Below are positions 24,252 to 27,842 of a stretch of 64,000 nucleotides of DNA, in pieces. The stretch is from Amycolatopsis australiensis (GTDB lineage Bacteria; Actinomycetota; Actinomycetes; Mycobacteriales; Pseudonocardiaceae), in the NCBI RefSeq assembly GCF_900119165.1, contig NZ_FPJG01000006.1, positions 8,718,001 through 8,782,000 of the forward strand, read 5' to 3'. The number at the start of each line of letters is the position of its first letter. Position 1 is the first letter of the stretch. The notes under the pieces were generated by a model. The model searched no databases, was not told where the DNA came from, and worked only from the letters and a program-made list of their open reading frames with translations. The position numbers and the translations under genes were made by a program.

Positions 24252-24329
24252 TGACTTCGGCGGCGGTCCGGCGCCGGCGCTCCGGCCCGCGGGCTCTAGG
24301 CTTTCCGGTTCCCGCTCTTGGAGGTTTCG

Positions 24330-25364
24330 TTGGAACGTCCGGTCCCCGACGTCACCGGGTTCGAGCCGGCACTGGCCGGCCGCATGCTGGCCACCGCCGC
24401 CTGCACCGACGCCGACGCCATCCCGAAGGTCGCCGACGCCGGCACCTGCCGCGAGCACGACGGCCGGCGCGTGCAGGTCATGCACAACGGCCTGCTCGTC
24501 GAAGAAGGCGGCTACTACGGCGCCTGGATGGCCGAGGTCATCCGTGCCCTGCGCGGCCACCACGAACCCCAGGAAGAGATCGTCTTCCACCGCATCCTCG
24601 AACGCCTCGCCGCCGACGGCGGAGCACCGGCCATGATCGAGTTCGGCAGCTTCTGGATGTACTACGGCCTCTGGTTCTGCCACGCCATCCCGGCCGGCCA
24701 CGCCGTCGGGCTCGAACCCGACCCCGCCTGGCTCGACGTCGGCCGCCGCAACGCCGCCCTCAACGGCTACCAGGACCGCGTCCGGTTCGTCCAGGCCGCC
24801 ATCGGCGCCCAGCCCGGCCGGCCATTGGCCTTCACCGCCGAAAGCGACGGGCGGATCCACGACGTCGTCCAGCACGATCTCGCGTCCCTGATGGCCGAAA
24901 CCGGGCTCGACCACGTCGACCTCGTCCTGGCCGACGTCCAGGGTGCCGAGACGGTCCTCATCGACCGCGCCCGCGGTGACCTCGAAGCCGGCCGCGTGCG
25001 GTTCCTCGTCGTCTCGACCCACCACCACACCATCTCCGGCGACCCGCTCACCCACCAGAACGCCCTCGAGCAGCTGGTGGCCGCCGGCGCGCACGTCATC
25101 GCCGAACACTCCATCGGCGAATCCGTCAGCGGCGACGGCCTCATCGCCGTCTCCTTCGACCCGCGCGACAAGGACTTCACCGTCCCGGTCACGCACGCCC
25201 GCTACTGCGATTCCTTCGCCGGCGAAGTCGAATACGACCTCGCCCGCGTCACCGCCGAACGCGACCACCTGCGAGCCGAGCTGGACCGCGTCCACGCCAC
25301 CAAACTCTGGCGCTGGGCCAGGAAACCCCGCGAGGTCTACGCACGCCTGACCCGGCGCAGCTGA
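24330..25364 (+). CDS. FkbM-family SAM-dependent methyltransferase
   Basis: 344 residues. I chose TTG at 24330 because GGAGG lies exactly five bases upstream, whereas an in-frame TTG at 24318 has no site. The SAM-binding region IEFGSFWMYYGLWF is at about 107-120, followed by GLEPDPAWLDVGRRNAALNG, and the FkbM-type VLADVQGAETVLIDRA is at about 197-212. The C-terminus carries a short coiled coil and a basic tail. FkbM enzymes O-methylate sugars or natural products. It stands alone, divergent from the MFS/MarR operon; target unknown. Confidence 0.9.
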   Translation: MERPVPDVTGFEPALAGRMLATAACTDADAIPKVADAGTCREHDGRRVQVMHNGLLVEEGGYYGAWMAEVIRALRGHHEPQEEIVFHRILERLAADGGAPAMIEFGSFWMYYGLWFCHAIPAGHAVGLEPDPAWLDVGRRNAALNGYQDRVRFVQAAIGAQPGRPLAFTAESDGRIHDVVQHDLASLMAETGLDHVDLVLADVQGAETVLIDRARGDLEAGRVRFLVVSTHHHTISGDPLTHQNALEQLVAAGAHVIAEHSIGESVSGDGLIAVSFDPRDKDFTVPVTHARYCDSFAGEVEYDLARVTAERDHLRAELDRVHATKLWRWARKPREVYARLTRRS

Positions 25365-25435
25365 CCACCCGGTCACGAGTCGTGGCCGTTGTTGGTTGAA
25401 GTTCCACGACGTGCCCGATACCCTGATGCCTGCAC

Positions 25436-25449
25436 TGGGAGCGCTCCCA
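25436..25449. promoter_or_regulatory. CebR box upstream of LPMO remnant
   Basis: TGGGAGCGCTCCCA is the perfect 14-bp palindrome bound by CebR, the cellobiose-responsive LacI-family repressor of cellulolytic genes in streptomycetes. It lies 42 bp before the start of the AA10 LPMO remnant. Confidence 0.85.
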
Positions 25450-25491
25450 CATGGATCACCCATCGCTCATCCCGAGAATGGCGGCCCATCC

Positions 25492-25894
25492 ATGCGTATG
25501 CGCAGCAGCTCCAGGCCCGTCACCCGACGGCGGAGCGTCCTCCCGCTGATCTCGCCACCCTGGCCGGCATGTTCGTCCTGGTCCCGGCGGCTTCGGCGCA
25601 CGGCACCATCGTCAGTCCCGCCACGCGCGCTTACCAGTGCTGGCTGGACTGGGGCAGCCAGCACACGAACCCGGCCATGCAGCAGCAGGATCCCATGTGC
25701 TGGCAGGCTTTCCAGGCCAACGCCGACACGATGTGGAACTGGATGAGCGCCCTGCGGGACGGGCTCGCCGGCAACTTCCAGGGCACGACCCCCGACGGTC
25801 AGCTGTGCAGCAACGCCTTGGCGCGCAACGACTCCCTCAACACGCCTGGCCCGTGGAAGACAACCAGCCTCGGCAGCACGTTCTCGATGCACCT
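25492..25894 (+). pseudogene. AA10 LPMO, N-terminal part (scrambled gene)
   Basis: The signal peptide begins MRMRSSSRPVTRRRSVLPL at 25492 but shifts frame before LATLAGMFVLVPAASA. The mature AA10 sequence then starts with the copper-ligand His1 in HGTIVSPATRAYQCW and continues through NPAMQQQDPMCWQAFQANAD and DGQLCSNA to PGPWKTTSLGSTFSMHL. At 25894/25895 the sequence changes to an inverted piece of the same gene, so the frame ends in a false TGA at 25900. AA10 enzymes oxidatively cleave cellulose or chitin. A CebR box upstream fits a cellulose role. Confidence 0.9.
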
Positions 25895-26047
25895 CCGGTG
25901 AACGTGATGTCCGTGGCGGGGGCGTACTTGCCCGTCTGCGTGATGAAGTCCAGGTTGCCCCAGCCGAGCCGCTGGGTGGTGGGGTCGAACCCGTTCTTGC
26001 TGACGTAGCCCCGGAAGAAGTCGGCGCCGTGGCTGGCCTGGTCGTAC
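25895..26047 (-). pseudogene. AA10 LPMO, middle part, inverted (segment A)
   Basis: Read on the minus strand, this 153-bp segment encodes YDQASHGADFFRGYVSKNG through TQTGKYAPATDITFTG, the middle of an AA10 LPMO including the second copper His (SHG). Flipped in place, its left end joins the upstream part in frame (CAC CTG TAC GAC) and its right end joins segment B in frame. Confidence 0.88.
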
Positions 26048-26158
26048 AACGCCGCATCTGGGAACTGACCGGCGTGTCCCCGGGGCCGGGCCTGGCCCCG
26101 CGCCTCGCGGAGGCGGCGGGCTGGTACCGCGAGGCACTGGACCTGTCTGTCCCATGAG
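26048..26158 (+). pseudogene. NDP-sugar epimerase, C-terminal fragment (segment B)
   Basis: The plus strand encodes RRIWELTGVSPGPGLAPRLA then EAAGWYREALDLSVP and a stop. The pattern of GxSP, then a basic/acidic helix, then a WYR motif is typical of the C-terminal end of extended SDR sugar epimerases/dehydratases. It is separated from the matching upstream fragment at 26451-26653. Placed directly after that fragment it continues in frame (ACC GAA CGC CGC). Confidence 0.65.
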
Positions 26159-26174
26159 GACGTGAGCCGAGGCC

Positions 26175-26206
26175 GGCCCGGCGCCCGTGTAGGCGGGTGC
26201 CGGGCC
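26175..26206. terminator. Hairpin terminator inside segment B
   Basis: GGCCCGGCGCCCG (26175-26187) and CGGGTGCCGGGCC (26194-26206) form a 13-bp stem with one G-T pair. In the reconstructed order it would sit between the convergent ends of the LPMO and epimerase genes. Confidence 0.75.
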
Positions 26207-26327
26207 GGGGGCATCTCCCAAGCCGAAGTTCACGTCGCTGCACCACATGTACGTCTGGTCCTGGTGGGACGCCTGCCAGATCGTGAACACGACGTGGTGG
26301 CCGCCGTAGGCGCCGGACGTCTGGACT
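26207..26327 (-). pseudogene. AA10 LPMO, C-terminal part, inverted (segment B)
   Basis: The minus strand encodes GVQTSGAYGGHHVVFTIWQA then SHQDQTYMWCSDVNFG, the classic C-terminal block of AA10 LPMOs. The block precedes no clear stop, so the true end may be shifted. Flipped in place, the 26327 edge joins segment A in frame (ACC GGA GTC CAG ACG), giving a native-looking loop. Confidence 0.88.
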
Positions 26328-26450
26328 CTGGGCGACGACGTCGGGGTCGATCGCCGAGCCGCCGCCGGCCACCCGCCGGACCGCCTCCCAGGAAGTCCGC
26401 GACGTCGGCGACGCGCTCCTTCGGCAGGTAGTCCTCGCCGAGGCCGCGCG
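26328..26450 (-). pseudogene. NarL-type regulator, receiver-domain fragment, inverted (segment C)
   Basis: The minus strand shows GEDYLPKERVADVADFL then, after one extra G, EAVRRVAGGGSAIDPDVVAQ. This is the end of a NarL-family receiver domain. The N-terminal receiver half with the phospho-Asp is absent. Flipped in place, GCC CAG joins ATG CTG TCC CGC at 26654 in frame, continuing into the DNA-binding part. Confidence 0.8.
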
Positions 26451-26653
26451 GGCGGGCACCGCGGGCGTGCTGTTCCTCAGCACGTGCGCGGTCTACCGCG
26501 ACGGAGTCCACTGCGGCGTGGCGGAGCCGTCGGACGGGCCGGGGCCGGCGACGGACCCGGCGTGGGCGGCGGGTGGCGAGGCGGTCGCCTCGGTGGTGGC
26601 GGTGGCCGACCTGGCGGCGGCGATCACGGCGTCGGCGCTCGGCCCCCGGACCG
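26451..26653 (+). pseudogene. NDP-sugar epimerase, internal fragment (segment C)
   Basis: The plus strand encodes AGTAGVLFLSTCAVYRDG, the beta-strand plus S-x-AVY motif of extended SDR epimerases. A shortened stretch ending VADLAAAITASALGPRT follows. The Rossmann N-terminus and much of the middle are missing. Its 3' edge at 26653 fits in frame onto the C-terminal fragment at 26048. Confidence 0.6.
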
Positions 26654-26896
26654 ATGCTGTCCCGCAACCGCGACCCGCTGCACGCGCTGACCGCCCGCGA
26701 GACGGAGGTCGTCGGGCTGATGGCCCAGGACCTGTCGAACGCGGCGATCGTGAAGCAGCGGGCGGTCACCCAGGGCGCGGTGGAGAACCACATCAGCAAC
26801 ATCTTCGCCAAGCTCGGCCTCGAGGCCAGCCGCGACGAGAACCGCCGCATCCGCGCGGTGCTGACCTACCTGGACAGCACCGCCGTCCGGGGCTGA
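26654..26896 (+). pseudogene. NarL-type regulator, HTH part
   Basis: An in-frame piece MLSRNRDPLHALTARETEVV then LMAQDLSNAAIVKQ, VTQGAVENHISNIFAKLGLE and RAVLTYLDS forms a complete LuxR-type helix-turn-helix ending at TGA 26896. The ATG at 26654 is probably an internal Met rather than a true start, because no ribosome-binding site precedes it. Without a receiver the product would be an unregulated DNA-binding domain, if it is made at all. Confidence 0.8.
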
Positions 26897-26902
26897 ACCA
26901 GG

Positions 26903-27628
26903 TCAGACGCGGACGATGCCCAGGTCGGCGGCCAGCCGGCGGAGGATCGCGTCCTGGTGGCGGGTGAGGAAGAAGTGGCCGCCGTCCAGCGGGACCAGCT
27001 CGAAGCCGCCCGCGGTGTGCCCGGCCCAGTCGGCGACCTCGTCGAGGGTGGCCATCGGGTCTTCGGTGCCGGTGAAGGCCACGATCGGCGTGGCCAGCGG
27101 CTTGCCGGGCACGTGCCGGTAGGTCTCGACGGCCCGGTAGTCGTTGCGCGCGGCGGGCAGGATCATGCGGACGACGTCGTCGTCGCCGAGCAGGCCGGTC
27201 TCGGTGCCGCTCAGCCGCCGCAGCTCGGCGAGGACGCCCTCGTCGGGTCCGGGTGTGCACGCTCTCGTCCCGCACCCGCGACGGCGCGCGGCGCCCGGAG
27301 ACGAACAGTCCCGCGACCGGTACGCCGTCCCGCTCCGGCCGCCGCGCGGTCTCGTAGGCACCATCGCGCCCATGCTGTGCCCGAACAGGGCCAGCGGACG
27401 GCCGTCCGGCGCCCGCAGCGCGTCGATGCTGGTCAGGAAGGGTTCGTGCCGCCGGTCCTGCCGCCCGGGGTACTCCACGGCCAGCACCTCGACGTCCGGG
27501 GCGAGCGCCTTGGCGACGGGGAAGTAGAAGGTGGCCGAGCCGCCGGCGTGCGGCAGGCAGACCAGCCGCGCCCGCGCGCCGGGTGACGCGGCGAACCGGC
27601 GGAACCGGTTCTCCTCGGTGTGGTCCAC
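26903..27628 (-). CDS. Type II thioesterase with a frame-shifted internal stretch
   Basis: 241 residues from GTG at 27628. LVCLPHAGGSATFYFPVAKA (about 22-41), VEYPGRQDRRHEP, nucleophile GHSMGAM (Ser85), FTGTEDP and DGGHFFL give a complete TEII triad. TEII enzymes clear mis-primed carrier proteins of PKS/NRPS lines. However, from about 27255 to 27375 the frame reads as nonsense (PTRPRGGRSG...). The expected AYETARR... sequence ending in VRDESVHT is in another frame, so two compensating indels have replaced about 38 residues. No PKS/NRPS is in the window. It may be inactive or contain sequencing errors. Confidence 0.75.
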   Translation of the reverse strand: MDHTEENRFRRFAASPGARARLVCLPHAGGSATFYFPVAKALAPDVEVLAVEYPGRQDRRHEPFLTSIDALRAPDGRPLALFGHSMGAMVPTRPRGGRSGTAYRSRDCSSPGAARRRGCGTRACTPGPDEGVLAELRRLSGTETGLLGDDDVVRMILPAARNDYRAVETYRHVPGKPLATPIVAFTGTEDPMATLDEVADWAGHTAGGFELVPLDGGHFFLTRHQDAILRRLAADLGIVRV

Positions 27629-27842
27629 GGGGGCGACCGCCTTTCCCTGTTTCGCGGCCACGGTCGCCAGGGGGCGAACGGCCAGGGCACCCCTAACACC
27701 CCCCAACCGTCCGTCCACACTGGACTGACGGGTGGTACCGGTGAATCGCCCGATCGGACGAGTAAACGTCGCCGAACCGGGTAAGCCCGACCCGGAGAAT
27801 GCCGCGTCCGTGGGGGAGCGCGGCGGCAGGAGGAGTCGCACC

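What the first reader, a model, noticed from the sequence alone, without database searches (positions are those of the whole stretch)
25895..26653. Three abutting segments each look inverted in place; flipping them back rejoins three genes in frame
The region holds pieces of an AA10 LPMO, an NDP-sugar epimerase and a NarL regulator on alternating strands. If segment A (25895-26047, 153 bp), B (26048-26327, 280 bp) and C (26328-26653, 326 bp) are each reverse-complemented where they stand, all junctions heal in frame. LPMO: CAC CT|G TAC and ACC GG|A GTC. Regulator: GCC CAG|ATG CTG. The epimerase, read on minus, joins C to B as ACC G|AA CGC. No base is gained or lost, and the hairpin at 26175-26206 then lies between convergent LPMO and epimerase ends. 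Ordinary inversions rarely stop at each other's edges. Possible causes: shufflon-like recombination, replication template switching, or assembly error. I see no recombinase gene and no long inverted repeats at the edges, only a shared GATGC near three of them. Separate indels (LPMO signal peptide, regulator receiver) remain after repair.
Basis: seen in the sequence. Interest (0 to 1): 0.85.

Follow-up and report, generated by a model that had tools for sequence, protein, structure and literature searches.

The report
Scrambled scar of a lost gene cluster
In this soil bacterium (Amycolatopsis) broken pieces of three genes lie in flipped order at the spot where some relatives carry an ~85 kb polyketide gene cluster; it looks like a rough DNA-break repair scar and not a genetic switch, although an assembly error cannot be ruled out without the raw reads.

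Summary
The flipped pieces are really in this assembly. In 108 of 108 relative LPMO loci the pieces lie uninverted and contiguous; in 13 of 13 regulator loci the two regulator pieces abut within 0-6 nt. But "all junctions heal, no base gained or lost" fails: after flipping, the epimerase still lacks its start, 204 bp at the B/C joint and 144 bp inside C, and the LPMO joint has 3 extra nt.

Context explains the spot. Rightwards the region is collinear with relative G067 for 267 kb with no other reversed piece found. In G029 and G075 (and by coordinates G067) epimerase and regulator lie 83-86 kb apart, around large ORFs of which the two tested are type I polyketide synthases; the parts of that cluster I tested are absent here. 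Segment C contains the fusion across that loss.

No edge repeats, no shared core, no nearby resolvase or integrase: not shufflon-like. Joints with little homology and Ku/LigD genes resemble end-joining scars in Streptomyces (PMC5869714). Assembly error remains the main rival.

The parts
25492..25894 (+). AA10 LPMO, 5' part (signal peptide has a 1-nt deletion)
   Evidence: relatives match LPMO_10 PF03067 (P0009)
25895..26047 (-). Segment A: next 153 bp of LPMO, inverted
26048..26157 (+). Segment B, left: epimerase 3' end with stop codon
26175..26206 (-). Hairpin following the LPMO 3' end (terminator-like)
   Evidence: similar hairpin-like sequence after LPMO in L043 and L053 (by eye)
26220..26327 (-). 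Segment B, right: LPMO 3' end, inverted; native stop codon lost
26328..26431 (-). Segment C, left: regulator receiver/linker piece, inverted, one extra nt
26432..26653 (+). Segment C, right: epimerase middle part with an internal 144-bp deletion; joined to the regulator piece across the 83-86 kb loss
26654..26896 (+). NarL-type regulator, linker and DNA-binding part
   Evidence: GerE PF00196
26903..27725 (-). Thioesterase with a +1/-1 frameshift pair, next to the lost cluster in relatives
   Evidence: PF00975

Best explanation
The stretch is a dead, scrambled repair scar. An ancestor carried LPMO (+), epimerase (-), an ~85 kb type I polyketide cluster, NarL-type regulator (+), thioesterase (-) and then the conserved chromosome (inferred from relatives). 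The cluster was lost, fusing a stump of the epimerase to a stump of the regulator (the fusion is shown in the sequence; breakage and non-homologous end joining is inferred). In the same event or in later breaks at this spot, three fragments (153, 280 and 326 bp) were rejoined flipped, with 0-3 nt added at LPMO and regulator edges and 204 bp of epimerase lost between B and C (inferred). The LPMO, epimerase and regulator remnants are very probably non-functional; nothing here looks like a switch.
For: Genes uninverted and contiguous in 108 of 108 LPMO and 13 of 13 regulator loci. The scar lies where synteny with G067 begins: 267 kb collinear to the right, 0 reversed matches near the diagonal. 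Epimerase and regulator 83-86 kb apart in G029 and G075, about 85 kb in G067, around large ORFs in G067, two of two tested being type I PKS. About 32 of ~85 kb of the G067 interval used as query finds only paralogues (mostly 64-76%) and short stretches, plus the epimerase remnants. LPMO is in a usual neighbourhood: the gene upstream in G050 and G077 is also upstream here, and the block from w28394 lies 6-9 kb downstream of LPMO in 4 of 15 loci of 20 kb. Regulator|epimerase joint 0-2 nt homology; LPMO cut 1 flush; LPMO cut 2 with 3 extra nt. Three Ku and three LigD_N matches over cut-off. Streptomyces NHEJ scars: 1-6 nt microhomology in 50%, additions of one non-templated nt or 1-4 nt fill-in in 40%, deletions of 191-23,591 bp, three small insertions, two of them from nearby DNA (PMC5869714 section 5).
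Against: Three abutting, order-keeping flips need at least four breaks within ~760 bp; the passages of PMC5869714 that I read describe no such scar. LPMO has few substitutions of its own (1, 3, 4 at codon positions 1-3 among 415 conserved sites), so little sign of long decay, while single-nt indels cluster in the same 2 kb, which would also suit poor local sequence. LPMO next to the epimerase was seen in no relative, so the ancestral order is inferred. The 144-bp epimerase deletion has 5-7 nt microhomology and may be ordinary slippage. In-frame sizes (204 and 144 bp) are not explained. Only the neighbouring 267 kb was checked for other flips.
Confidence: 0.6

Rival explanations
1. Assembly error: the loss of the cluster is real, but the small fragments were put in the wrong orientation (or the spot was badly assembled), so the flips do not exist in the cell.
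For: Four single-nt indels in about 2 kb and few substitutions suit poor local sequence; the fragments are short (153-326 bp); the strand-flipped order heals LPMO and regulator almost exactly; no second strain or protein with the same joints was found.
Against: Flipping does not restore the epimerase (204 + 144 bp and N-terminus missing); LPMO has a lost stop codon and a signal-peptide lesion outside the joints; 3 extra nt at a joint are not expected from mere misorientation; no run of N in the window and no other flip in 267 kb.
Confidence: 0.25
2. Stepwise decay: the cluster was lost by a simple deletion, and the flips and small deletions came later and separately, by replication template switching or slippage in DNA no longer under selection.
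For: 5-7 nt microhomology at the 144-bp epimerase deletion; several independent lesions in LPMO, regulator and thioesterase.
Against: Flips abut with almost no loss or duplication at LPMO and regulator edges; edges have no inverted repeats beyond chance; few substitutions in LPMO.
Confidence: 0.12
3. Site-specific, shufflon-like inversion of three segments.
For: Adjacent segments with shared edges; GATGC near three of the four edges.
Against: No edge repeats, no core shared by all edges, GATGC sharing expected by chance; no resolvase or integrase-family gene over cut-off within 90 kb (transposase families not searched); 0 of 108 relative loci inverted; the segments cut through broken genes.
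Confidence: 0.03

Closest known systems
NHEJ repair scars in Streptomyces ambofaciens after I-SceI breaks (Hoff et al. 2018, PMC5869714; outline with abstract, found passages and section 5 read)
   Same: High-GC actinomycete with Ku and LigD genes; large deletions, joints with little homology, 1-4 nt additions, small fragments of nearby DNA at some joints
   Different: Here three abutting fragments keep their order but are flipped, and the loss is ~85 kb; I saw no flipped fragments described in what I read
Shufflons and other invertible DNA segments (recalled, no call)
   Same: Adjacent segments inverted between shared edges
   Different: No repeats, no core site, no recombinase of the two families searched nearby, broken genes
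Chromothripsis-like local shattering (eukaryotic term, recalled)
   Same: Clustered breaks, short fragments rejoined in altered orientation with losses
   Different: Gene-sized, order kept, bacterial; a single event is not shown

Membership tests
Ku/LigD end-joining scar | Ku and LigD genes in the genome | tested here: met
   3 Ku (PF02735) and 3 LigD_N (PF13298) matches, all over cut-off
Ku/LigD end-joining scar | Joints with at most ~6 nt homology or short additions | tested here: inconclusive
   LPMO and regulator edges and the 83-86 kb fusion fit; the 144-bp deletion has 5-7 nt; the A/epimerase and B/C joints cannot be read exactly since this species' native sequence is unknown
Ku/LigD end-joining scar | Formation depends on Ku/LigD | not testable with these tools
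   needs strains
Shufflon / site-specific inversion | Inverted-repeat recombination sites at segment edges | tested here: not met
   longest inverted repeat 5 nt within 20 nt of the edges, as by chance
Shufflon / site-specific inversion | Common core at all crossover points | tested here: not met
   no 4-, 5- or 6-mer shared by all four edges within 15 nt; sharing by three is expected by chance
Shufflon / site-specific inversion | Recombinase gene close by | tested here: not met
   PF00239 at 2.0 and 6.7 Mb only; nearest PF00589 match at 8.654 Mb, below cut-off; other families not searched
Shufflon / site-specific inversion | Both orientations in one population | not testable with these tools
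   no reads held
Assembly misorientation of otherwise intact genes | Turning the pieces gives the genes as in relatives | tested here: not met
   LPMO and regulator nearly, but the epimerase lacks 204 + 144 bp and its N-terminus; LPMO has other lesions
Assembly misorientation of otherwise intact genes | Raw reads contradict the joints | not testable with these tools
   no reads held
Template-switch (microhomology-mediated replicative) rearrangement | Microhomology at the joints | tested here: inconclusive
   5-7 nt at the 144-bp deletion; 0-2 nt or extra bases at the LPMO, regulator and fusion joints

The most novel reading that the evidence does not exclude
A single local shatter-and-rejoin event in a bacterial chromosome: several breaks around one spot released the polyketide cluster and small fragments, and end joining put three fragments back in order but flipped, leaving a gene-scale chromothripsis-like scar.
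Probability: 0.25. Interest if true: 0.6.

Novelty: new variant of a known kind. Interest (0 to 1): 0.35.

Why it matters
If the joints hold up in reads, this is a readable natural example of how a large biosynthetic gene cluster can leave an actinomycete chromosome through error-prone repair, with far more rearrangement at the joint than a clean deletion, and it shows that abutting small inversions can arise without a recombinase. If the joints fail, it is a useful example of an assembly artefact at a real deletion.

Tried and rejected
Shufflon / invertase: rejected. Whole-block inversion (25895-26653 flipped as one): leaves LPMO, epimerase and regulator pieces interleaved and needs as many further steps (reasoning, no call). 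Genome-wide habit of small inversions: none in the adjacent 267 kb (matches of at least 40 nt within 2 kb of the expected place; masked stretches not seen); the rest of the genome was not examined. Same scar in another strain: no sign among protein hits (7 hits, none covering more than 78% of the query; 471 hits, best 120 listed, best identity 91%; hit sequences were not read one by one). Plasmid collection: 44 records, best places 60-80% identity in 43 and 80-90% in 1, none covering 80% of the query. Old decay of LPMO: codon-position counts do not show it (23 of 28 loci gave a usable frame). Paper searches: micro-inversion in bacteria, chromothripsis and NHEJ in bacteria, template switch with short inversion (0 papers) gave nothing on point; of PMC2483231 I saw two passages only. 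One search gave PMC5869714, read in part. (Amycolatopsis comparative genomics) was seen as a listing only.

Full report
What is there. The window is G000:C6:8718001-8782000, in a 9.3 Mb genome of 10 contigs. Its LPMO relatives by name are mostly Amycolatopsis, a soil genus. I compared each piece of 25.4-26.9 kb with relatives. LPMO: 25435-25894 (+), 25896-26048 (-) and ~26221-26326 (-) match consecutive stretches of one gene. Over 108 loci (28, 80; several genomes twice) 108 of 108 are uninverted and contiguous. Regulator: rc(26328-26430) and 26654-26890 are contiguous within 0-6 nt in 13 of 13 loci, and the full protein of G067 is a receiver plus LuxR-type DNA-binding protein. Epimerase: pieces 26432-26563, 26552-26653 and 26048-26157 follow each other on one strand in G056, G075, G029 and G067, but with 204 bp missing between the last two (G056, G075, G029) and 144 bp missing inside the C part (G056, G075; the linker is longer in G029 and G067), and without the N-terminal part.

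LPMO gains 3 nt at the A/B joint and the epimerase is not restored. LPMO also has a 1-nt deletion in the signal peptide and has lost its stop codon. The regulator piece has one extra base, and the thioesterase next door has a +1/-1 pair.

Context. From 26653 rightwards the window and its continuation follow G067 in order and orientation; over 267 kb a search for reversed matches near the expected place (E 1e-4, at least 40 nt) found 0. Left of the spot there is no such collinearity with G067. In G029 the epimerase is at 794996-795891 (-) and the regulator at 881567-881914 (+); in G075 they are at 4563773-4564433 (-) and 4647845-4648199 (+). Between them in G067 lie very long ORFs (a mechanical ORF list); the two tested are type I polyketide synthases. 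With 20 kb of the PKS part, 5.7 kb near the right end and 8.5 kb around the epimerase from G067 as queries, this genome returned paralogues at about 64-76%, short stretches at up to 98%, and the epimerase remnants at the scar. LPMO lies in a usual place: the gene block upstream (w22.4-24.2 kb, an MFS-transporter-like ORF by my reading) is also directly upstream in G050 and G077, and the block from w28394 is 5.9-8.8 kb downstream in 4 of 15 loci of up to 20 kb. The simplest history is that an ancestor had the cluster between LPMO and the conserved block and lost it. LPMO next to the epimerase is inferred; no examined relative shows it.

How it arose. The edges have no inverted repeats beyond 5 nt (random positions mostly give 5-6) and no core shared by all four; GATGC near three of them is expected by chance. 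No resolvase- or integrase-family gene over cut-off lies within 90 kb. The joints that can be read are flush (LPMO cut 1), carry 3 nt (LPMO cut 2; perhaps a duplicated base plus added bases, ambiguous), or have 0-2 nt homology (the regulator|epimerase fusion); the 144-bp epimerase deletion has 5-7 nt of microhomology depending on the relative. The genome has three Ku and three LigD_N matches over cut-off. Streptomyces scars attributed to this pathway show single-nucleotide additions or 1-4 nt fill-in in 40%, 1-6 nt microhomology in 50%, deletions of 191 bp to 23.6 kb, and three small inserts, two from nearby DNA (PMC5869714, section 5). Flipped fragments at such a joint are an extension of that. 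Whether one event or several made the scar cannot be told.

Against. Three flips in order are a special outcome for any one event. LPMO has few substitutions of its own (1, 3 and 4 at codon positions 1-3 of 415 conserved sites; 23 relatives), while single-nt indels are dense here compared with the neighbouring 165 kb of aligned coding sequence, which has 41 unbalanced indel clusters in all, in either genome and many of them complex. Both facts would also fit a badly assembled spot. No reads and no second strain were available, and no protein with the same joints was seen. I therefore keep an assembly error at about one in four.

Noticed in passing
window 24318-25364: A methyltransferase-like ORF (label recalled; no Pfam match at 1e-8) sits between the MFS-like gene and LPMO here, but its relatives lie 3-17 kb upstream of LPMO in G028, G038 and G064: further local rearrangement left of the scar.
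   Followed up: partly
window 26903-27725: The thioesterase has a +1/-1 frameshift pair about 115 bp apart, as if decaying along with the lost cluster.
   Followed up: partly
G000:C6 3.80-3.92 Mb and 7.08-7.20 Mb: Two large stretches of PKS-like matches elsewhere in this genome.
   Followed up: no
G000:C6, about 8.83, 8.95 and 8.96 Mb: Pairs of opposite single-nt frame changes 70-115 bp apart in coding sequence versus G067: sequencing errors or compensated frameshifts, polarity not resolved.
   Followed up: no
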